A DNA stretch of 64,000 nt from Bacteroidota bacterium (GTDB lineage Bacteria; Bacteroidota; Bacteroidia; Chitinophagales; LD1). The stretch is taken from contig JAFDYQ010000002.1 of NCBI GenBank assembly GCA_018267365.1, positions 124,001 to 188,000 on the forward strand, read 5' to 3'. Below, piece after piece: positions 1,373-11,243 of this stretch. The notes beneath the pieces are model-generated. The model was not told where the DNA came from and did no database searches. It worked only from the letters and a program-made list of their open reading frames with translations. Each line of letters begins with the position of its first letter. The stretch's first letter is position 1. Position numbers and translations under genes: made by a program.

Positions 1373-1417
1373 GGTATAAAAGTAGGCAAAAGATCATTGC
1401 GCTGCCAGTGCAGTTCA

Positions 1418-3646
1418 CTACTCTCCAAACTCTGCCGACCTGTCCACCTTCTGCCCTGCGTAGGTCTTGCAGTTCAGATCTATGGTCAGCTTCTCTGGCC
1501 GCTCAAACTGCCGTGAGGGAGAGATACCCAGCGCCGTAGAGTCGGCAAAAACCTTTTGCAGAAATTTCGCACAGATAGGCAGCGCCGTGCTGGCACCCTG
1601 CCCATACTCCATACTGCGAAACCGTATGAACCTATCCTCACAGCCCACCCACGTGGCCGTCACCAGATCCGGCGTGCAGCCCATAAACCAGCCGTCAGAG
1701 TTATTCTGCGTCGTACCGGTTTTGCCTATGATATCTCCCGGCAGGTGGTAGCGGTAGCGCAGGCGCACGCCCGTGCCATAGCTCACTACTCCGCGCAGCA
1801 GGTCTACCATTACATAGGCAGTAGGCTCGTCCAGCACCTCGCGCTGCTCCGCAGCAAAGCTTGCTATGACCGTGCCGGTCCGGTCCTCTATACGTGTCAC
1901 AAAGATGGGATCCACATGCACTCCCTTATTAGCAAAGGTGGTATACGCACCCGCCATCTCTATCAATGATATATCTGCTGTACCGAGGCAGATAGATGGC
2001 TGGTCAGGTATCTCGCTGGTCACACCCATGTCGTGTACCAGCTTGACCACGGTAGCAGGGCTCATCTCATGCATGAGGTAGGCGGTGATGGTATTGACAG
2101 AGTTGGCCAGGCCCTGCTTGAGGTTTAGAGTTCCTCCATATTTATTGTCCGAGTTGTGAGGTGTCCAGTCATCCTGCAGGTGAAATCTCGGATCACCCGC
2201 CTCAAATGTCACGGGCTCATTTGGCACCTCATAGCAGGGTGAATAACCTTTTTCTCTGATGGCTGCCAGATAGACGAATGGCTTGAATGTAGACCCTATC
2301 TGCCGCTTGGTATTCACATTCACGTGGTCATATTGAAAGTACTTGTAGTTCACCCCGCCTACCCAGACGCGCACATTGCCCGATGCCGGGTCCAGCGCTA
2401 CAAATCCATTCTGGAGGATCATCCTGTGGTAGCGGATCGAGTCCCACGGGCTCATCAGCGTATCCTTATCTCCCTGCCAGCTGAAGATCCGCATCGCTAC
2501 CTTTGTACGCATCAGCGTATCTATCTCCTCACGTGTCTTACCCTCGGCCTGGTACTGCTTGTAGCGCGCACTCTGCGTATAGGTGCGCTCCCACTCCTCC
2601 GGGAACTCTTTCCACGGGTCTCTGGCGCTCATCTTAAAGAATAACTTCTGCCACTCCTCCAGATGCTCCCGCTGCGCCTCCTCGGCATAGCGCTGCATAC
2701 GAGAATCTATGGTCGTGTAGATCTTCAGGCCGTCCTTGTAGAGATCATAGGTAGTGCCGTCAGGCTTGGGGTGATTGTCCAGATAGCCGGCTATATAAAG
2801 GCGCAGATACTCACGAAAGTATGGTGCGAGCCCGTCCTCATGAGTCCCCGCATCAAAACGTAGCACAAGAGGCAACCTCGTGAGAGAATCATATTGATGG
2901 TCTGTCAGGAAGCCATAGTTGGCCATCTGAGACAGCACTACATCCCTTCGCTTGCGCGATGCTTCAGGATTCTGGTGCGGGTTATAGGCGGTAGAGGCTT
3001 TGAGCATGCCTACCAGCACGGCGGCCTCCTGTACATTCAGAGAGTCTACCGGCTTGCTGAAATAGGTTTCTGCGGCTGTACTGATACCGAAAGCATTATC
3101 GCTGAATGGTACCGTATTGAAATACAACGCCAGGATCTCTTCTTTGGTGAAAGTATGCTCCAGCCGTGCAGCTATCACCCACTCTTTAAATTTCTGCAGG
3201 GCCAGCTGTACTTTAGATATATGCCTCTTGCGCGGGAAGAGGTTTTTCGCCAGCTGCTGCGTGATGGTACTACCGCCCCCCTTGGAGTCGCGGATCACCA
3301 CACCGAGTACGGCCCGCCCTACAGCCTTGAGGTCTATACCCGTATGGTCGTAGAAGCGGACATCCTCAGTAGCCAGCAGTGCATCTACCAGACACTTAGG
3401 CAGGTGATCATAGGTCACATTAGTACGGTTTTCCCGAAAGTATTTGCCCAGTACTACACCATCTGCGCTGATCACTTCGGTAGCCGTATTAGACTTAGGG
3501 TCCTCCAGCTCATGTACCGATGGCAGCCGCCCCCACATACCGGTGGCGATGGCAAAAAAGAATAGCACCAAACTGGCAATACCGATCCAATACACCACCC
3601 AAAAATACCCCGCCGGCCGCCACACCTTATCTCTGAAAAAGCTCAT
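1418..3646 (-). CDS. Class A penicillin-binding protein (PBP1A-like)
   Basis: Bifunctional peptidoglycan synthase of 742 residues, polymerising glycan strands and cross-linking peptides on the outer face of the inner membrane. A single N-terminal membrane anchor (about residues 13-36) is followed by a GT51 transglycosylase domain (ATEDVRFYDHTGID, GGGSTITQQLAKNLF) and a transpeptidase domain with all three active-site motifs: STFK near residue 450, SVN about 65 residues later, and KTGTT near residue 640. The start at 3646 gives MSFFRDKVW, and the same start is partly repeated at 8745 (see repeats). The island operon ends 38 bp upstream with no visible terminator, so this gene may now be transcribed with the island. 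Length is normal for the family. Confidence 0.95.
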   Translation of the reverse strand: MSFFRDKVWRPAGYFWVVYWIGIASLVLFFFAIATGMWGRLPSVHELEDPKSNTATEVISADGVVLGKYFRENRTNVTYDHLPKCLVDALLATEDVRFYDHTGIDLKAVGRAVLGVVIRDSKGGGSTITQQLAKNLFPRKRHISKVQLALQKFKEWVIAARLEHTFTKEEILALYFNTVPFSDNAFGISTAAETYFSKPVDSLNVQEAAVLVGMLKASTAYNPHQNPEASRKRRDVVLSQMANYGFLTDHQYDSLTRLPLVLRFDAGTHEDGLAPYFREYLRLYIAGYLDNHPKPDGTTYDLYKDGLKIYTTIDSRMQRYAEEAQREHLEEWQKLFFKMSARDPWKEFPEEWERTYTQSARYKQYQAEGKTREEIDTLMRTKVAMRIFSWQGDKDTLMSPWDSIRYHRMILQNGFVALDPASGNVRVWVGGVNYKYFQYDHVNVNTKRQIGSTFKPFVYLAAIREKGYSPCYEVPNEPVTFEAGDPRFHLQDDWTPHNSDNKYGGTLNLKQGLANSVNTITAYLMHEMSPATVVKLVHDMGVTSEIPDQPSICLGTADISLIEMAGAYTTFANKGVHVDPIFVTRIEDRTGTVIASFAAEQREVLDEPTAYVMVDLLRGVVSYGTGVRLRYRYHLPGDIIGKTGTTQNNSDGWFMGCTPDLVTATWVGCEDRFIRFRSMEYGQGASTALPICAKFLQKVFADSTALGISPSRQFERPEKLTIDLNCKTYAGQKVDRSAEFGE

Positions 3647-3661
3647 GGGGTGAAGGTAGGG
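3602..3661 (-). repeat. Direct repeat copy A: 5' end of the PBP gene
   Basis: This 60-bp stretch covers the first 15 codons and 15 bp of upstream sequence of the penicillin-binding protein gene. It aligns without gaps to 8701-8760 at 50 of 60 positions, with an identical core reading (minus strand) ATGAGCTTTTTCAGAGATAA. It marks the left edge of the AT-rich island. Several mismatches inside the coding part are synonymous (GTG/GTA, CGG/AGG), so the copies look like diverged alleles rather than a fresh duplication. Confidence 0.85.
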
Positions 3662-3684: not shown

Positions 3685-4179
3685 TTAGTGATAAATTGGA
3701 ATCTGAGGGTATGGAATCAAAATATCTAGAAAATGAGGAAGAGCTTCCTTTACAATTACGCCAAAAAGAATAAGTAATCCGCCAAATAGATAAATTGCTT
3801 CTCTTTCATCATTTGCCAATACAAATGAAAATTTAGTCTTTCTGTAAACTGCATTGAAAACAAGATAACTTAAAACGAACACTAGAATAATGGAAGTCAA
3901 AGCCGCAATCACGAACGCAACGTAATACTGCGAAAAAAAAGCAGGTGCTTGAGATTGTGTAGTAGATACAAGTCTTAAAAGGGTAGACATCGGAGTAAAT
4001 AACGTAGATAATATATAACCACAGAGAGCAACCAGAATGGCCTTAAGTAAAAGATATGGAGACTCAGTCCCTGTGTTGTTAGCAATTTTTGCTAAACGGT
4101 TCACTCCAATATTTATAGCTAAAGCAATAAATGCAGCAGGCAAAACAATGACGACAAGAATTAAAAATTGAATCTTCAT
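3685..4179 (-). CDS. Unknown small membrane protein, last gene of the island operon
   Basis: A 164-residue protein I do not recognise. It has about four hydrophobic segments: near residues 5-25 (with SP-I-like ALAINIGVNRLA), 45-65, 85-112 (VAFVIAALTSIILVFVLSYL) and 128-148. A short acidic loop (NDEREA) precedes the last one. Its ATG overlaps the stop of the preceding gene by 4 bp (ATGA), indicating translational coupling to the transglutaminase-like gene. The product is probably an inner-membrane partner of the other island proteins. No enzymatic motif is visible. Confidence 0.7.
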   Translation of the reverse strand: MKIQFLILVVIVLPAAFIALAINIGVNRLAKIANNTGTESPYLLLKAILVALCGYILSTLFTPMSTLLRLVSTTQSQAPAFFSQYYVAFVIAALTSIILVFVLSYLVFNAVYRKTKFSFVLANDEREAIYLFGGLLILFGVIVKEALPHFLDILIPYPQIPIYH

Positions 4180-5849
4180 ATAACAGTAATTGGTTTTGAT
4201 AGTAAGTTAACCTGCCAAAAGTTAGTATTGGATATTTCCAGCGGAATCTCACCGGGACGAATACCTTGTGATGTTGTCTCCCATAACACATATCTTTTGC
4301 CTTGAATCATTTTAAAGGTTCCAGAATAAGGTAAATTAACACCTATGAGGGAATGTTGATATGTAATACTTCCTAGCATTACAACATCATAATTAAAATG
4401 AGCCAGAACTGTATATAATAACAGTGCACGCGTATCACAATCCCCCTTTATGTTTGCTGCAAATTCTACTGGACTGAAAAGCCCATATTTTACATTACCC
4501 TCACAATTGCCTTCGGTTTGCAGATACTTCTTGATAAAGCCATCATTGTAAGATGTAGCTGAGCAGTCTTTATCTAACACCAAAACATAAGGAATATCCT
4601 GAATACATGAAACTATTACCTCCGCAAATTGAGTTTCAGATAGCTTATATTTTGTTCTTAAGGAATCAAACATGAAATATACTCTTTTCAATCCCTTATT
4701 GTCAAACCTGCTGAGGGAATCAACAATCAGATTATAGTCGCTAGTAGAATTTAGAGTAAACGGTAAAGTTGTTCTATCGCGTTGAGATGCAAGCAAATCA
4801 GATTTTAATATATCTATTGAAGCTTGGTAAAGCGTATCCCTGTAATCTTTCCATATTCTCATATGACTTATTAGAGAATCTGAATACCCTACTTCGTTTT
4901 TAGTTCTAATTTTTTCTTGGGAATCATCTTGTAAGAGTTGACTACGTTTTACAACCGGTAATGGTTTTTGTAATAGATTGATAAAACCCAATCCTAAATA
5001 TAAAACAAATGCGATAGAAAATAGACTTAATCCCCATCTGAAGAAATTAGTAAAAATAGATGGCAGCAGAGAAATCAATATGAAGATAAGCCAAACGATG
5101 GCAATAGGGATCAACACTTTCCAGGCTAAAAAAAACACAATCAAAAAAACAAAGAAAAAATAGACGTATCCTATTGCAGAAAAAATACCATCATACCAAT
5201 TACTAAAGTTTCCTTTCTCCAATTGCGCGGATCCTTTCACAGGAGTCCATTTCGACCATTCGAGACTGCCGGATTTAAGATTAGATATGACTCGACGTGT
5301 ATAACCGTTTACGGTTTGCACGGTCCCATATGCTGCAAAACCTCCAAAATCATAGCTGTCACTTATGACTATATGGTCTTCACTAATATTTTTTTCTTTT
5401 AAAATTTCGGTTGAATCTACCTCAATTTCCTCATAGTCAAAATGCCTGATATATCCAGATATTTCGCACTCAATCGTACCAAACATTCTGTCTCCCTCAT
5501 AGAGTTGATTATATAATTGAGGATTGAATATTTGCGGATTCAACAGTTCCAATCCAAAGTACTTTATAGAACCATCCGGGTATATTACACTACAGTTTAA
5601 AGGATTAGGAATACTTAAAAGAAAATCCTGAGGGGATTCTAAAGGAATAAATTCATTTTCTGTATCCCATCTTTTTAAGTCGATTTGGTTAACGATCACA
5701 TTGGCCTCATAGATTTCAATGCTGTAATGGTTTTCCCATTTTTGATCTGAGCGTGCATGATCAATATAAGCCCAATACTTACCTTTCAACTTACCTTTCA
5801 GGTAAGTCCGCCGCTCAATTGCCCTCTTTATGGTTATGGGTTCAGACAT
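4176..5849 (-). CDS. Membrane-anchored transglutaminase-like protein of the island
   Basis: About 557 residues from the start MSEPITIKRA, chosen because it overlaps the upstream stop by only 8 bp; an in-frame start at 5900 would lie deep inside the upstream gene. The N-terminal 215 residues are soluble and unknown (contains NCSVIYPDGSIKYFG). A cluster of about three hydrophobic segments lies near residues 225-310, followed by a C-terminal domain. There KGDCDTRALLLYTVL, YQHSLIGVN and VLWETT have the order and spacing of the Cys-His-acid triad of transglutaminase-like folds. The role (protease, amidase or inactive scaffold) is unknown. Fourth gene of the operon, overlapping both neighbours. The fold call comes from motif order only. 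Confidence 0.6.
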   Translation of the reverse strand: MSEPITIKRAIERRTYLKGKLKGKYWAYIDHARSDQKWENHYSIEIYEANVIVNQIDLKRWDTENEFIPLESPQDFLLSIPNPLNCSVIYPDGSIKYFGLELLNPQIFNPQLYNQLYEGDRMFGTIECEISGYIRHFDYEEIEVDSTEILKEKNISEDHIVISDSYDFGGFAAYGTVQTVNGYTRRVISNLKSGSLEWSKWTPVKGSAQLEKGNFSNWYDGIFSAIGYVYFFFVFLIVFFLAWKVLIPIAIVWLIFILISLLPSIFTNFFRWGLSLFSIAFVLYLGLGFINLLQKPLPVVKRSQLLQDDSQEKIRTKNEVGYSDSLISHMRIWKDYRDTLYQASIDILKSDLLASQRDRTTLPFTLNSTSDYNLIVDSLSRFDNKGLKRVYFMFDSLRTKYKLSETQFAEVIVSCIQDIPYVLVLDKDCSATSYNDGFIKKYLQTEGNCEGNVKYGLFSPVEFAANIKGDCDTRALLLYTVLAHFNYDVVMLGSITYQHSLIGVNLPYSGTFKMIQGKRYVLWETTSQGIRPGEIPLEISNTNFWQVNLLSKPITVI

Positions 5850-6828
5850 TATACAATTCGTCGAGAAGGATATCTTGCTCACCAAATTTCCGAGAATCAA
5901 TCTTTCTCATTGTCCTGAAAGGAGGATCATGATAGTCGACATCAAACTCGAAATTATTTCTTTGGATCTCAGCCATAACGAGATTTAATCTTGCAGTCCT
6001 TTCTATAGGAGCTTGATCCAATGCTTGAAAATATTTTTGCCATAGTTTAGTATAGCTGATTTCGAATGCCGCATATTCCTCTAACACTAAACGCGTTTCA
6101 ATCTCTCTTTTTAATTGATAAAAATCAGCCTGCTCTGGAAGAAAATATTTGATGTAAATAGGTGCTAAAAAAACGGCAATCATAAACAACGTAAAAACCC
6201 ACGTTATCAGATGCTTAGAGTTTAAGAGCCTAAGTTGTTGCACATAGAAGTCAGAATGATAGATTCGAAATTTAAGAGCCTTAACATCTGCATTTTTTTG
6301 AGAGAGTAGAATAGTTTTGGAGCTATTGCTATCTTTATCACCATGTTTTTCTAGCCAATCCATATCTTTAAAAGATTGCCCATACACTGATTCGATAGTC
6401 TTCATTCTCCGCGCATATTCTTCGTTCCTATATTCTTCGATATCACCCTCTAATACAGGTGACAATATCAATAATTCGAAAGGCTTAGCTACAATCAGCG
6501 CGAATACGCCAATCAAAAAAACTCTTAGAGTAATAGATACCCACTTTGCTCCTTTGCTAGCTACATATGGGAGCATGTTCTTTGATAAAGTATAAAGTAC
6601 CAGCAGATAAATATTGGCGGTAACTAAAGCAAAAAAAACTCCTACAGATATGCCTATAATATAACTATTAAAAAGTCTTGATAAGGCTGTAGTAAAGCTT
6701 ATAAAGCTGATGACAATGATACACGCGACTAAAGCTCCTATCCAAGCAAATCGATTCTGCACTTTTTTGTCGCACTGTCTGATTATACTAAGATCATCAC
6801 CCGATAAAACATGTAAAAGCCGTTTCAT
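5842..6828 (-). CDS. DUF4407-like membrane protein, shorter paralogue
   Basis: 328 residues, third gene of the island operon, starting 1 bp after its larger relative stops. The layout resembles the DUF4407 protein next door: an N-terminal SGDDLSIIRQCDK segment, two hydrophobic helices (about 30-50 and 55-85), a third ending in AKPFELLIL (compare SKPVEIRMF in the neighbour), a polar region rich in charged residues (about 130-200), a further helix near 208-228, and a soluble C-terminal tail. It looks like a diverged copy that has lost much of the long coiled-coil part. Function unknown. The similarity is judged by eye. Confidence 0.6.
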   Translation of the reverse strand: MKRLLHVLSGDDLSIIRQCDKKVQNRFAWIGALVACIIVISFISFTTALSRLFNSYIIGISVGVFFALVTANIYLLVLYTLSKNMLPYVASKGAKWVSITLRVFLIGVFALIVAKPFELLILSPVLEGDIEEYRNEEYARRMKTIESVYGQSFKDMDWLEKHGDKDSNSSKTILLSQKNADVKALKFRIYHSDFYVQQLRLLNSKHLITWVFTLFMIAVFLAPIYIKYFLPEQADFYQLKREIETRLVLEEYAAFEISYTKLWQKYFQALDQAPIERTARLNLVMAEIQRNNFEFDVDYHDPPFRTMRKIDSRKFGEQDILLDELYNV

Positions 6829-6829
6829 A

Positions 6830-8062
6830 TTAGTTTGCTGATGAATCTATCTTTATAAAATCATCAGGATTCTCATTTATACGATTAGTTATCTTCTCTT
6901 CGTATTTAGATAAAGCATGTTTAGTTAATCGCTTTTGGACATTTAGCAACTCTAATTTTTCATGGATCATCTTTTCGACATTCATGTGTGTTACTAAATC
7001 TCTTTCGAGGCCTTGTTTATCTTGATAATAGTTATGCTGAATATATATTCCTTCCTCAGCTTTCATAAGTTCCTTTATATTTTCTTCCATATAGTCATAT
7101 GGTGTCTTAACAAGCATGAGTTTGAAAAATATTGGGGTTAATTCTATAGTCAAAAAGAGTAAAGTAATGAATAGAGAAATCCAGAATCCAGCAATCTCAT
7201 GTGCTAGCTTTATTCGTTCAAGTAATCCATCTAGACCATTAGCTACTAATTTGTTCTTACTGAGCTCCACGTCCATCTCCTTAATGATTTTTTTCTTTTC
7301 CGTTGTCAGTTCTTCATAACGACTTTTATTCGAGTTATCGAATGAATTGAGTTGATCCTCCAAATTGGATTTTATACCACGAAGTGCATCAGAAAGCTTT
7401 CCATCTCCGGCTGGAGCTCCTGCCCGCCCCTGCAACTGATTTGTCAACTCCAGAGTAGCTTTATTTATCTTCTCGACAAATTCTTCTCTACCTGTTTCCA
7501 TCTTATTTAATTCATCGTCTATTAATTTAATTCTACCATCGAAGTTCGCTCTTGTACGTACCTCGTAGTCTTTTTGTAGCTTCAACTGTTCCTCATGCAA
7601 TGCGGTGTCAATTTCTGTCTTAAACATTCTAATTTCTACTGGTTTTGAAATTGTCATGGCAATAACAGCCCCCATTATTATTCGCGGGATTGCACCTTTA
7701 AACTCAGTCCAAGTTATTTCTTCGGTTCCATCTCCTTTGCCTGTGCTCGTCACTATGAATCGATCGATATTAAAAATCATTAATCCCCAAAAACAACCGA
7801 AAAGAAGAGAGCAGAATGCTGTAACTGGATGAAAAGATGAATCTAGAGCAGAACCTTTAGGCTCAAAAATGGTATAAAATGCATATCCTCCAGCAATACC
7901 GGCCATAACACCCGTAGCTAAGACGATTCCACCAAGACACATATACTTAATCTGGTCTGAATAAGTTGCCCTCTCCAAAATATATTCGTCTGCCCCAGCT
8001 ACATTCCAAAGCATTTTCATTATACGCGAAGGTTTCGGCGTTATGTAAAAATCTCTTTTCAT
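6830..8062 (-). CDS. DUF4407 domain-containing membrane protein
   Basis: 410 residues with the typical DUF4407 arrangement: a short N-terminus with WNVAGADEYILERA, two helices (about 45-68 and 85-105) followed by FNIDRFIV, a third helix at GAIPRIIMGAVIAMTISKP, a long charged segment of heptad-like character (about 155-285), a fourth helix (GFWISLFITLLFLTIELTPI, about 292-312), and a charged C-terminal tail. The family has no established activity. The form suggests a membrane-anchored coiled-coil scaffold. It lies 4 bp downstream of the first island gene and is followed 1 bp later by its short paralogue, so the two probably form a heteromer. Confidence 0.75.
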   Translation of the reverse strand: MKRDFYITPKPSRIMKMLWNVAGADEYILERATYSDQIKYMCLGGIVLATGVMAGIAGGYAFYTIFEPKGSALDSSFHPVTAFCSLLFGCFWGLMIFNIDRFIVTSTGKGDGTEEITWTEFKGAIPRIIMGAVIAMTISKPVEIRMFKTEIDTALHEEQLKLQKDYEVRTRANFDGRIKLIDDELNKMETGREEFVEKINKATLELTNQLQGRAGAPAGDGKLSDALRGIKSNLEDQLNSFDNSNKSRYEELTTEKKKIIKEMDVELSKNKLVANGLDGLLERIKLAHEIAGFWISLFITLLFLTIELTPIFFKLMLVKTPYDYMEENIKELMKAEEGIYIQHNYYQDKQGLERDLVTHMNVEKMIHEKLELLNVQKRLTKHALSKYEEKITNRINENPDDFIKIDSSAN

Positions 8063-8066
8063 TCTT

Positions 8067-8495
8067 TTATTGGTTTAGGTTATCAGTAAATTGAGATAGT
8101 GAAATTTTTATTTTTTTTGTTCTGACTTTTGGAGTTTCCAGAAGAATTTGAAGCTTGGGCATGGTAATATCCATGCCTAAGGCAACAGGAGTTAAATCTG
8201 GAACTCTATGAACAAGAGGATATAAATGATTCGTTGCTTCTACCGCAATATTTGCGGTAGAAACCGAGTCTTGATTAATTGGAATTACTTTTTCGACTAC
8301 TTCGTCGATACCATAAAATAATATTGCAAGCTTGGCTTGGTTATTATCAATTTTAATTGCACAAGCCCTGTCCCGTGGAGAGACTATGCTTCCATCAGGT
8401 AGTACAATTTTATAACAATACGTACAATCCCAGATAAGAGTAGTTAATGACGATATGACATATGGGTCCGCGAGTGTTACATAATATACAGACAT
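8067..8495 (-). CDS. Unknown 142-residue protein, first gene of the island operon
   Basis: Small, mainly soluble-looking protein that I do not recognise. I chose the ATG at 8495 (MSVYYVTLADPY) because a purine-rich GGGGAGGAAA lies directly before it, one of the few Shine-Dalgarno-like sites in the window. An in-frame ATG at 8636 would add 47 residues. The segment YCYKIVLPDGSIVS resembles CSVIYPDGSIKY in the transglutaminase-like protein of the same operon, which may reflect a shared small domain. It is separated from the DUF4407 gene by 4 bp. Role unknown. Confidence 0.6.
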   Translation of the reverse strand: MSVYYVTLADPYVISSLTTLIWDCTYCYKIVLPDGSIVSPRDRACAIKIDNNQAKLAILFYGIDEVVEKVIPINQDSVSTANIAVEATNHLYPLVHRVPDLTPVALGMDITMPKLQILLETPKVRTKKIKISLSQFTDNLNQ

Positions 8496-8625
8496 TTTCC
8501 TCCCCAAGAAACTTGCAAAGCGACATACTACCCACTGCCAAATAATACCTATTCTAATTAAATATTTTTGCGGAATCAAAATGGGCCATTTATAAGTTCT
8601 ATTATCATATTTCAAACACTGCAAA

Positions 8626-8745
8626 TTAAAATTCAAAATAAATTAAACAATACCCTAAAAGGGGTAGATCAATGAACGACGTGTATTTATGGAACAAGTT
8701 AGAATACCCCCCCGGCCTCCATACCTTATCTCTGAAAAAGCTCAT
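8626..8745 (-). pseudogene. Truncated duplicate of the PBP gene start
   Basis: From the ATG at 8745 the reading frame gives MSFFRDKVWRPGGY, matching the first 14 residues of the penicillin-binding protein with one change (A to G at residue 12). It then runs into unrelated island sequence and stops at 8626 after 39 codons. It is a remnant of the gene start left on the far side of the island. Upstream sequence beyond 8760 probably includes the ancestral promoter region of the penicillin-binding protein gene. Confidence 0.7.
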
Positions 8746-8760
8746 GCAGCTAAGGTAGTA
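8701..8760 (-). repeat. Direct repeat copy B at the right edge of the island
   Basis: Ungapped 50/60 match to 3602-3661, in the same orientation. To its right the intergenic stretch 8761-9005 contains no gene; it is AT-rich around 8825-8860 and probably carries regulatory sequence for the adhesin-like gene that follows and, formerly, for the penicillin-binding protein gene. Confidence 0.85.
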
Positions 8761-9005
8761 AAACACCGTCAGCTGAGATAGGCCGTACCTGTCACATCAG
8801 AGCCATATAGACTCATCGCTGATTTTTCGGTCAAAATAAATATATCTTAATCACAATCAGATGTTTAGCAAAATAGCAAATCCTTATGCAACTTTTGAGC
8901 CCATGATTGCTTCTCTTTGTATACATAAGCGAAAAGAAACATTAGGTTTTAAGGCACTTATGAAGCCCGGCCTGCCGCCTTTTCACATAAAAGTCATTAC
9001 GATAG

Positions 9006-11243
9006 ATGTTACAGTTTTATCCCTTTCCCTCCGTCCTGCGCCAAACGTTTCTGCTCATACTGTGCTGCTGCTCTATCAGTATGAGTCAGCTGTATGGCCA
9101 GACATGCCCCACCCTCACCATCACTCCTGACACCAGTATCTGCCCGGGTACCTTTGTTTTACACTCTGCCATCTCCTCCGGCACTATTATATCCCGCTCC
9201 TGGCAGCCGCGATACGGACTGAGTGATAGCACCGTAGCCAATCCCACCGCCACCGTCACGCATGATACAGCTTATACCTGCACCGTCAAAGTGAGCTCTA
9301 CTACCAATCTTATCAGCAATGGTGATTTCTCTGCAGGCAATACAGGATTCAGCAGCGGTTATACCTATCTCAGCGCCCCTCCGGCGCAGCCCTGCGGCTC
9401 TTATGGTATACTGGGCTGTGAGGCAGATTATACTATAAATACCAATCCGCGCAATACGCATACTCAGTTTGCCAACTATGGCGACCACACCTCCGGCTCC
9501 GGCCAGATGATGATCGTAAACGGTGCCACCAGCCCCAATATCAGCGTGTGGTGTCAGACCATCACCGTGCAGCCCAACACGGATTATCAGTTCTCCGCCT
9601 GGGTCTCTAATGTGGACCTCAACCCCCAGCCCCTGCCCAACCTTCGCTTTAATATCAATGGTGCTCCGGCGGGGCCTCCCTTTAGCCCTGTGATATCTTC
9701 AGGAGTATGGACGCAGTTTTATACCCTGTGGAACTCCGGCTCCAACACCAGTGTCAATATCTGCCTGACCGACTCCAGCACCGCCGGCGGCGGCAATGAC
9801 TTTGCACTGGACGATATCGCCTTTATACCTATCTGCACCCTCACTGATACGGTACACATCACCACTTTTGTCAAGCCTACTGTAGCCCTCCCCGCAGATA
9901 CGAGTTTCTGCGATAGCGTATACACCAGCATCACCCCGGTCGTGACAGGCACGGGCACGCTCAGCTACCTCTGGTCAGATGGCAGCACACAGACTCTAGA
10001 TACGGCACATCTGGCAGGCCTCTACTGGCTGCAGGTGAGCAATCAGTGCTCCTCCTCCGCTACGCGCGATAGCATCCGCATAGCGCTCAGCCAGACTCCT
10101 ACGGCAGACCTGGGCCCTGACTCTGTGATCTGCTCCGGCCGCGCTATGGTCATAGTACCGACTGTCACAGGTACCTCGCCCGTATCTTACTCCTGGCAGG
10201 ACGGCACCATAGATAGTACCTATACTGCCACGACCAGGGGCATCTACTGGCTGAGCGTGAGCAATAGCTGCGGCGCCTACACAGACTCTATCGCTATAGA
10301 TACACTCTCTGCTCCGGCGGCATTCTCTATAGGTAGCGATCAGGGCCTCTGCGCAGGCGCACAGCTCACACTCCGGGCGGTGCCTGTACCTGCTGCGGGG
10401 CTATCGCTGCTCTGGCAGGATGGCGTCACGCAGACGGATACTTTCCCCGTGACTGCGGCGGGCACCTATGCACTGACAGAGAGCAATCGCTGTGCGGCTA
10501 CTACTGCCACCGTCACTATTACTGCCCTGCAGCCGCCATCGGTCAGCCTGACGGCAGTGCCTGTATATTGCGATGTAGATAGCGTGCTGCTGGCACCTGT
10601 CGCTACAGCTGCGCAGAGCTATAGCTGGAGCACCGGATCGGCACAGCCATCTATCTATGCGCACAGCTCTGGCATCTATGCCGTGACCGTGACCAATACC
10701 TGCGCCACCGCAGCTGCATCTGCCGGCATACTGATGCTGACCACGCCTTCCCGCTTCTACTCCGGTGCCACCATAGATAGCTGCCTGCGCGCCGGTGTGA
10801 CGCTCGATGAGCAGGGCACGGGCCGCAACTTCCTCTGGTCCGGCGGTCAGACCACGCAGGCCATCACAGTGACAGACTCAGGCCAATACACGGTGATCAT
10901 CAGTGACTCTGCCGGCTTCTGTCCTACTACTGATACGGTGAATGTCATCTTCCACTCCTGCAGCGACTGCCCTACGGCTATCCCGACCGCCTTCACGCCC
11001 AATGGCGACGGCATCAATGACAAGTTTATGACCTACTCGCTCTGTACCAACGAGAGCTACCAGATCACGATCTACAACCGCTGGGGAGAGAAGGTCTACG
11101 ACTCACCTAGCCAGGCAGACGGTTGGGACGGCACCTATCGCGGCATAGCACAGCCCGCAGGCGTGTATGTCTACTATGTGCACTACCACACCACCGGCAA
11201 GCCCGACCAGTACCACACAGGGTCGCTGACATTGATCAGGTAG
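9006..11243 (+). CDS. Secreted multi-repeat protein with gliding-motility-type C-terminal domain
   Basis: 745 residues. A signal peptide (about 1-32, ending SQLYGQ) is followed by a region with NGDFSAGNTGFSSGY and an ALDDIAF-type jelly-roll segment (about 100-275). Next come four to five Ig/PKD-like repeats of roughly 80 residues, each with a YxWSDG/SWQDG-like core and GxYWLxVSN strand. The C-terminal domain (PTAFTPNGDGINDKF, YNRWGEKVYDS, GWDGTYRG, PAGVYVYYV) is the type B sorting signal recognised by the type IX secretion system. Expected to be displayed on or released from the cell surface, possibly in adhesion or matrix. It stands alone; PorP/SprF lies 43 kb away. Confidence 0.9.
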   Translation: MLQFYPFPSVLRQTFLLILCCCSISMSQLYGQTCPTLTITPDTSICPGTFVLHSAISSGTIISRSWQPRYGLSDSTVANPTATVTHDTAYTCTVKVSSTTNLISNGDFSAGNTGFSSGYTYLSAPPAQPCGSYGILGCEADYTINTNPRNTHTQFANYGDHTSGSGQMMIVNGATSPNISVWCQTITVQPNTDYQFSAWVSNVDLNPQPLPNLRFNINGAPAGPPFSPVISSGVWTQFYTLWNSGSNTSVNICLTDSSTAGGGNDFALDDIAFIPICTLTDTVHITTFVKPTVALPADTSFCDSVYTSITPVVTGTGTLSYLWSDGSTQTLDTAHLAGLYWLQVSNQCSSSATRDSIRIALSQTPTADLGPDSVICSGRAMVIVPTVTGTSPVSYSWQDGTIDSTYTATTRGIYWLSVSNSCGAYTDSIAIDTLSAPAAFSIGSDQGLCAGAQLTLRAVPVPAAGLSLLWQDGVTQTDTFPVTAAGTYALTESNRCAATTATVTITALQPPSVSLTAVPVYCDVDSVLLAPVATAAQSYSWSTGSAQPSIYAHSSGIYAVTVTNTCATAAASAGILMLTTPSRFYSGATIDSCLRAGVTLDEQGTGRNFLWSGGQTTQAITVTDSGQYTVIISDSAGFCPTTDTVNVIFHSCSDCPTAIPTAFTPNGDGINDKFMTYSLCTNESYQITIYNRWGEKVYDSPSQADGWDGTYRGIAQPAGVYVYYVHYHTTGKPDQYHTGSLTLIR

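What the first reader, a model, noticed from the sequence alone, without database searches (positions are those of the whole stretch)
3685..8495. Five-gene DUF4407/transglutaminase-like membrane operon, possibly an undescribed system
Gaps of 8 bp overlap to 4 bp show a single unit. It encodes an unknown soluble protein, a full DUF4407 protein, a short DUF4407-like paralogue, a membrane-anchored protein with a Cys-His-acid transglutaminase-like end and a small four-helix membrane protein. Coiled-coil membrane scaffolds plus a protease-like effector on a mobile-looking island is the kind of layout seen in defence or conflict modules, but no known system of this composition comes to mind.
Basis: inference. 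Interest (0 to 1): 0.75.

Follow-up and report, generated by a model that had tools for sequence, protein, structure and literature searches.

The report
Mobile five-gene membrane protease operon
A set of five genes that always travel together in Bacteroidota builds an inner-membrane complex ending in a protease-like domain outside the cytoplasm; it hops between genomes next to anti-virus genes and matches no system described in the databases and papers searched, so it may be an unknown bacterial defence system.

Summary
Five overlapping or abutting minus-strand genes (3685-8495; gene A probably starts further upstream, up to 8636) form one operon. Relatives show the same order in 36 non-redundant loci from three Bacteroidota orders. 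In 299 genomes of the same order, the operon-type DUF4407 gene and the full-length transglutaminase-like (TG) gene occur in exactly the same 15, always adjacent. Gene D's C-terminal domain models at high confidence (pLDDT about 95) as a TG-like cysteine peptidase, closest to LapG and other TG-fold enzymes, with an invariant Cys471-His499-Glu524. Odd membrane-span counts and N-terminal J-domains in relatives place it in the periplasm. E is DUF350-like; B and C are DUF4407. The 5-kb unit is an insertion: a 56-bp piece of the neighbouring PBP1A gene start flanks it, and a sister genome has the empty site. Relatives lie near type I restriction genes, thermonuclease and a STING-TIR gene, far more often than random loci of the same genomes. 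No gene matches PADLOC models, and no paper found describes the set. A conflict (anti-phage) role is likely but untested; envelope stress is the main rival. D-E alone is a core pair in many Flavobacteriaceae.

The parts
8067..8636 (-). gene A: hydrophobic/amphipathic N-terminus plus beta-rich domain, 142 aa from ATG 8495 or up to 189 aa from TTG 8636
   Evidence: ORF; relatives 160-230 aa with a matching N-terminal stretch and motif; no Pfam/NCBIfam/PADLOC hit
6830..8062 (-). gene B: DUF4407 protein, 4 predicted TM helices, long coiled-coil hairpin (about residues 148-275), 410 aa
   Evidence: Pfam PF14362 E=4e-63; AF2 model pLDDT 82; distinct clade from stand-alone DUF4407, 100/100
5842..6828 (-). 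gene C: short DUF4407-like membrane paralogue, 328 aa
   Evidence: PF14362 E=1.6e-15, over cut-off; conserved position in the operon
4176..5849 (-). gene D: beta-rich N-domain (cytosolic, J-domain in some relatives), 3 predicted TM, periplasmic TG-like cysteine peptidase, 557 aa
   Evidence: invariant residues, AF2 model, VIA-align Z 9.5 to LapG, DnaJ in 3 relatives, topology
4179..4877 (-). TG-like domain of D (residues 325-557), Cys471 (4437-4439), His499 (4353-4355), Glu524 (4278-4280)
   Evidence: pLDDT about 95; Cys, His, Glu invariant in 18 of 18
3685..4179 (-). gene E: four-TM protein, DUF350-like, C-terminal IPYPxxP tail, 164 aa
   Evidence: relatives in the same slot exceed the Pfam DUF350 cut-off; conserved C-terminal tail in many relatives
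3604..3659 (.). right 56-bp direct repeat: intact PBP1A gene start plus 13 bp upstream
8703..8758 (.). left 56-bp direct repeat: orphan copy of the PBP1A gene start, 88% identical
   Evidence: single copy at the empty site of the sister genome L173
1418..3646 (-). PBP1A-like transglycosylase/transpeptidase, the target gene whose 5' end is duplicated
   Evidence: Pfam Transgly and Transpeptidase; homologues in 6 same-genus genomes, all without the operon

Best explanation
A mobile membrane surveillance-and-effector system, most likely anti-phage. Shown: a five-gene operon inserted at the PBP1A start; TG-like peptidase fold with an invariant triad; co-occurrence of the parts; defence-gene neighbourhood of relatives. 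Inferred: A and the N-domain of D sense or transmit a cytoplasmic cue; B and C (DUF4407) form a coiled-coil frame that carries the signal across the inner membrane; E (DUF350) holds or gates D in the membrane; on activation D's periplasmic Cys-His-Glu domain cleaves (or transamidates) an envelope protein or peptide cross-link, blocking phage entry or release or killing the infected cell. It works like inside-out periplasmic proteolysis (LapD-LapG) but with different parts.
For: Operon conserved in 36 loci with perfect B-D co-occurrence in 15 of 299 genomes. Patchy: absent from 6 same-genus genomes. Insertion flanked by 56-bp repeats, with an empty site in a sister genome; other cargo at or near the same site in sister genomes, including an AAA_15/AAA_21 ATPase gene and an HD-domain gene. 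Orders intermingle in the B tree, at least 4 changes forced. Flanks: 204 and 208 PADLOC families hit per about 115 proteins versus 36 per 119 control proteins; HsdM in 7/36 loci versus 0/17 random and 0/41 D-E-only loci; within the same genomes 2 HsdM genes within 10 kb where 0.1 is expected; STING-TIR gene next to one copy. TG fold and triad. Periplasmic placement.
Against: No functional test. No PADLOC or NCBIfam family match. The window copy itself has no classical defence gene beside it. D-E alone is a fixed core pair in many Flavobacteriaceae, which suggests an ancestral housekeeping role for the protease pair. Genes on islands can have other roles. The cysteine's activity and substrate are unknown. 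Topology rests on hydropathy counts.
Confidence: 0.5

Rival explanations
1. An envelope-stress or membrane-maintenance system: DUF350 and coiled-coil proteins stabilise the inner membrane, and D trims misfolded or cross-linked envelope proteins. It spreads as an accessory fitness trait, not as immunity.
For: DUF350 (YjfL) occurs in PspA/CesT-Tir envelope-stress operons (PMC11237479); D-E alone is a core pair in Flavobacteriaceae next to a response regulator/kinase pair, a surface-protein gene and a 326-aa gene; J-domain fusions suggest chaperone links; histidine kinase and response regulator genes directly upstream of many copies.
Against: Very patchy (15/299 genomes), horizontally moved and enriched near restriction genes; none of the recurrent neighbour families in the 36 loci is PspA-like.
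Confidence: 0.27
2. A surface-modification or adhesin-release switch like LapD-LapG or HvyA: D cuts or cross-links a surface protein or capsule factor, changing the cell surface (and phage receptor access) in response to an internal signal.
For: The nearest solved folds include LapG (Z 9.5), a periplasmic inside-out protease; the TG homologue HvyA controls Caulobacter capsule and phage sensitivity through its catalytic residues (PMC4241560).
Against: No LapD-like, adhesin or capsule gene recurs beside the operon.
Confidence: 0.15
3. An offensive or toxin-type unit: D is a toxin domain and E its immunity partner, part of competition between bacteria.
For: A protease-like domain followed by a small membrane protein resembles toxin-immunity order; thermonuclease genes recur nearby.
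Against: D has cytosolic domains and membrane anchors rather than an export route; D and E are also present as core chromosomal pairs; no secretion genes recur.
Confidence: 0.05

Closest known systems
LapG / bacterial TG-like cysteine peptidases (also HvyA)
   Same: Periplasmic TG-like fold with Cys-His-acid; an internal signal may control an outside protease
   Different: D is membrane-anchored with a cytosolic N-domain, uses Glu as the acid, has extra conserved cysteines, and has no LapD-like partner or adhesin substrate
DUF4407 (PF14362)
   Same: B and C are members
   Different: Most DUF4407 proteins in the sampled genomes are single chromosomal genes; the operon type is a separate clade
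DUF350 / YjfL and PSP-linked operons
   Same: E is DUF350-like; membrane-envelope context
   Different: No PspA, CesT/Tir, ATP-grasp or spermidine-synthase genes recur; paired with a TG protease
FtsZl1 (Tubulin_2) / vWA operons (PMC2875224)
   Same: D-like TG membrane proteins occur in two operons with Tubulin_2 proteins (L043, L248)
   Different: No tubulin-like or vWA protein in the five-gene operon
Zorya
   Same: Membrane proteins with long coiled coils; defence-island setting (comparison from general knowledge)
   Different: No match to any PADLOC model, Zorya included; the effector here is protease-like, not a nuclease or helicase

Membership tests
Transglutaminase-like cysteine peptidase fold | papain/TG-like fold | tested here: met
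   AF2 pLDDT about 95 over 325-557; VIA-align Z 9.6-7.2 to 3kd4, LapG, PNGase, TG2/3, PeiW
Transglutaminase-like cysteine peptidase fold | Cys-His-acid catalytic triad | tested here: met
   Cys471, His499 and acid 524 invariant in 18/18, but the acid is Glu, not the usual Asp
Transglutaminase-like cysteine peptidase fold | Pfam Transglut_core match | tested here: inconclusive
   none in the window protein (E<=1); weak matches in a few distant relatives
Transglutaminase-like cysteine peptidase fold | peptidase or transamidase activity | not testable with these tools
   needs biochemistry
DUF4407 | Pfam PF14362 over cut-off | tested here: met
   B 213.8 bits, C 57.6 bits, cut-off 31.3
DUF350 | Pfam PF03994 over cut-off | tested here: inconclusive
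   not reached by the window E, reached by E of L034, L038, L040 and L043 in the same slot
LapD-LapG system | LapD receptor and adhesin substrate encoded nearby | tested here: not met
   no such recurrent neighbour in 36 loci; a distant genomic location was not searched
Known anti-phage system (PADLOC-DB 2.0.0) | match to a system model | tested here: not met
   0 families at E<=1 for all five proteins
Anti-phage defence system in general | enrichment in defence islands | tested here: met
Anti-phage defence system in general | protection against phage | not testable with these tools
   needs a plaque assay
PSP envelope-stress operon | PspA homologue in the operon | tested here: not met
   conserved operon consists of A-E only (plus X in split variants) and no recurrent neighbour family is PspA-like

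The most novel reading that the evidence does not exclude
A previously undescribed anti-phage system in which a DUF4407/DUF350 inner-membrane complex relays a cytoplasmic infection signal outward to a periplasmic transglutaminase-like protease, so that the immune effector acts in the envelope rather than on nucleic acids.
Probability: 0.35. Interest if true: 0.85.

Novelty: categorically new. Interest (0 to 1): 0.62.

Why it matters
DUF4407 and DUF350 are widespread families without known function; DUF4407 is mentioned in only three papers of the library searched. This operon gives both a concrete, mobile and clonable context with a predicted active-site residue to mutate. If it defends cells, it adds an envelope-acting, protease-type effector and explains a recurrent unit in Bacteroidota defence islands.

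Tried and rejected
Sequence search of PDB with the D (TG) and B profiles: nothing for D, only generic coiled coils for B. Foldseek with the whole D model: weak; the TG fold showed clearly only with VIA-align. Foldseek with B: only unrelated long-helix ABC transporters, rejected as common arrangement. Viral contigs and plasmids: no relative of the TG domain in either, and none of B in plasmids, so no phage or plasmid vehicle was found. No integrase lies in the 5-kb insert, so site-specific integration in trans and recombination via a carried PBP1A fragment cannot be told apart. Considered and dropped: a functional link with PBP1A, because relatives' neighbours do not include it as a recurrent family; the Mg-chelatase, PhoX, aminotransferase and 2OG-oxygenase neighbours of D-E-only or TG-only loci, treated as coincidental; the TG protein of L046, which lacks the family's motifs. 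The full 18-row D alignment was too diverse for the contig scan, so the TG domain alone was used.

Full report
What is there. Window 3685-8495 holds five minus-strand genes with gaps of 4 and 1 bp and overlaps of 8 and 4 bp, called A to E in transcription order. The operon has 34-38% G+C, its surroundings mostly 46-60% (0.353 against 0.496 by direct comparison). B (410 aa) and C (328 aa) are DUF4407 proteins over the Pfam cut-off; A, D and E have no convincing family and none of the five matches any PADLOC defence model at E<=1.

The unit is real. In 299 genomes of the same order the D protein found 23 genomes; 15 of them (the own genome included) hold D next to A, B, C and E in the same order. 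The B protein at E<=1e-50 found exactly the same 15 genomes; such an overlap by random draw has probability about 1e-25. A scan of GTDB species genomes with the TG domain gave 166 relatives, of which the best 80, all Bacteroidota, were examined. In all, 36 non-redundant loci from Chitinophagales, Flavobacteriales and Cytophagales carry the operon, gaps mostly within 20 bp. In a subset D is split in two genes, X plus a shorter D. Two further copies were found in other genomes of the same class.

What the proteins are. AlphaFold2 models the last 233 residues of D at pLDDT about 95. VIA-align places them with TG-like enzymes: a Parabacteroides protease 3kd4 (Z 9.6), LapG (9.5), PNGase (9.0), transglutaminases 2 and 3 (8.6) and pseudomurein endoisopeptidases (7.5 and 7.2); values below about 8 alone would not be decisive, but the top rows all share one fold. 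Cys471, His499 and Glu524 are invariant in 18 relatives. Three relatives have an N-terminal DnaJ domain, which puts the N-domain in the cytosol. Hydropathy counts give three membrane spans in most operon-type D proteins and one or three in the short ones, which puts the TG domain in the periplasm, in line with two further cysteines conserved upstream of the active site. This topology is an inference. E is a DUF350-type protein: the gene in the same slot exceeds the Pfam cut-off in L034, L038, L040 and L043, though the window E does not. B models as four membrane helices with a long coiled-coil hairpin between the third and fourth; no solved relative was found.

It is mobile. A 56-bp segment covering the start of the neighbouring PBP1A gene is present on both sides of the operon (3604-3659 and 8703-8758, 88% identical); its 23-bp core occurs nowhere else in the genome within 3 mismatches. 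In a same-genus genome with 95% identical PBP1A, window 8703-11243 and 1411-3659 are joined with one copy of the repeat, that is, the empty site. Another sister genome carries different small genes at that place, a third is close to empty, and an AAA_15/AAA_21 ATPase gene or an HD-domain gene lies near in others. No recombinase lies in the insert. The B tree mixes the orders (Chitinophagales need 7 label changes, at least 4 forced by well-supported branches) and separates operon-type B from stand-alone DUF4407 with full support, although several long branches make details unsure.

It sits among defence genes. Flanking proteins of the 36 loci hit 204 (115 proteins) and 208 (112 proteins) PADLOC families at E<=1e-10, against 36 in 119 control proteins from random loci of the same genomes. 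These are counts of families, inflated by redundant methyltransferase models, so the locus counts matter more: HsdM in 7/36, HsdS in 6/36, a lone HsdR N-domain in 4/36 and a thermonuclease in 7/36 loci, each 0/17 in random and 0/41 in D-E-only loci (the family models were built from the operon loci themselves, which favours finding them there). As an independent check, in 15 operon genomes 2 of 22 strong HsdM genes (Pfam N6_Mtase) lie within 10 kb of the operon, 0.1 expected (p about 0.004). One copy has a STING-TIR gene nearby. A histidine kinase/response regulator pair, often with a divergent gene of unknown family, stands near the operon, mostly directly upstream, in about a third of the loci. 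The window's own copy has no classical defence gene next to it.

Two modules. D-E occurs alone at a fixed chromosomal place in many Flavobacteriaceae, between a response regulator/kinase pair, a surface-protein gene and tyrS (those names are read from sequence, not tested with profiles), and D-like proteins occur in two operons with Tubulin_2 proteins, the FtsZl1 group that Makarova and Koonin linked to membrane remodelling (PMC2875224). Stand-alone DUF4407 genes are common single chromosomal genes. So the mobile operon joins a DUF4407 module (A-B-C) to a protease pair (D-E).

How it probably works. The best-supported reading is a membrane system that passes a cytoplasmic cue outward to a periplasmic cysteine peptidase. 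The logic resembles LapD-LapG, and the TG homologue HvyA shows that such a domain can change phage sensitivity through its catalytic residues (PMC4241560). Because the operon is patchy, transferred, inserted at a hotspot and placed among restriction and CBASS-type genes, an anti-phage role is the most likely single reading, but nothing here tests function. Envelope-stress maintenance is the main rival, given DUF350's place in PSP-linked operons (PMC11237479).

Novelty. DUF4407 is named in three papers of the library; in the two opened it appears only as a table entry without a function. DUF350 plus transglutaminase gives one unrelated survey. No described system with this composition was found. 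'Categorically new' is chosen because every known system tested fails on composition; if the function turns out to be defence, it would be a new system within that broad class. PADLOC-DB used here dates from 2023, so a later description under other names cannot be excluded.

Noticed in passing
window 3604-3659 and 8703-8758; L173, L174, L175: The start of the PBP1A gene is an insertion hotspot in this genus: different cargo in sister genomes, with copies of the gene start left at the borders and no recombinase inside.
   Followed up: partly
L087 (also L036, L037, L083, L088, L090, L108, L124): A repeated island unit: an unknown gene of about 307 aa with no Pfam hit, divergent from a TPR histidine kinase and a response regulator, followed by variable cargo such as the five-gene operon; L087 carries two such units in tandem.
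   Followed up: partly
L234:5953-7248 (Lak megaphage MK250016) and 14 other Lak records: All 15 phage records that matched B are Prevotella Lak megaphages; they carry a DUF4407 gene of the stand-alone type (read with TAG=Q), next to a 689-aa gene that looks like a TonB-dependent receptor.
   Followed up: partly
L043:3571-10550 and L248:8135-15958: D-like TG membrane proteins in operons with Tubulin_2 (FtsZl1) proteins and large unknown proteins: a link between this protease family and the FtsZl1 system.
   Followed up: partly
L214:4786-10171: A PLD-nuclease domain fused to an A-like domain directly upstream of a DUF4407 gene, followed by a small HTH-like gene and a 775-aa HATPase protein: A and B may pair with other effectors.
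   Followed up: partly
L247:2961-8104: A distant D-like TG membrane protein encoded directly after Cas6 and two unknown genes (one ending in a vWA-like motif) in a CRISPR locus with RAMP and Cas3-like genes.
   Followed up: partly
L099-L157 (Flavobacteriaceae), e.g. L107:8661-11225: D-E pair at a fixed core locus between a response regulator/kinase pair, a surface-protein gene, a 326-aa gene and tyrS: an uncharacterised housekeeping protease pair.
   Followed up: partly
L108:4962-5177 and eight other loci: A secreted protein of about 71 aa with a conserved YHY...CRGLS.C...TLC.W pattern recurs near the operon in 9 of 36 loci; no Pfam family above its cut-off.
   Followed up: no
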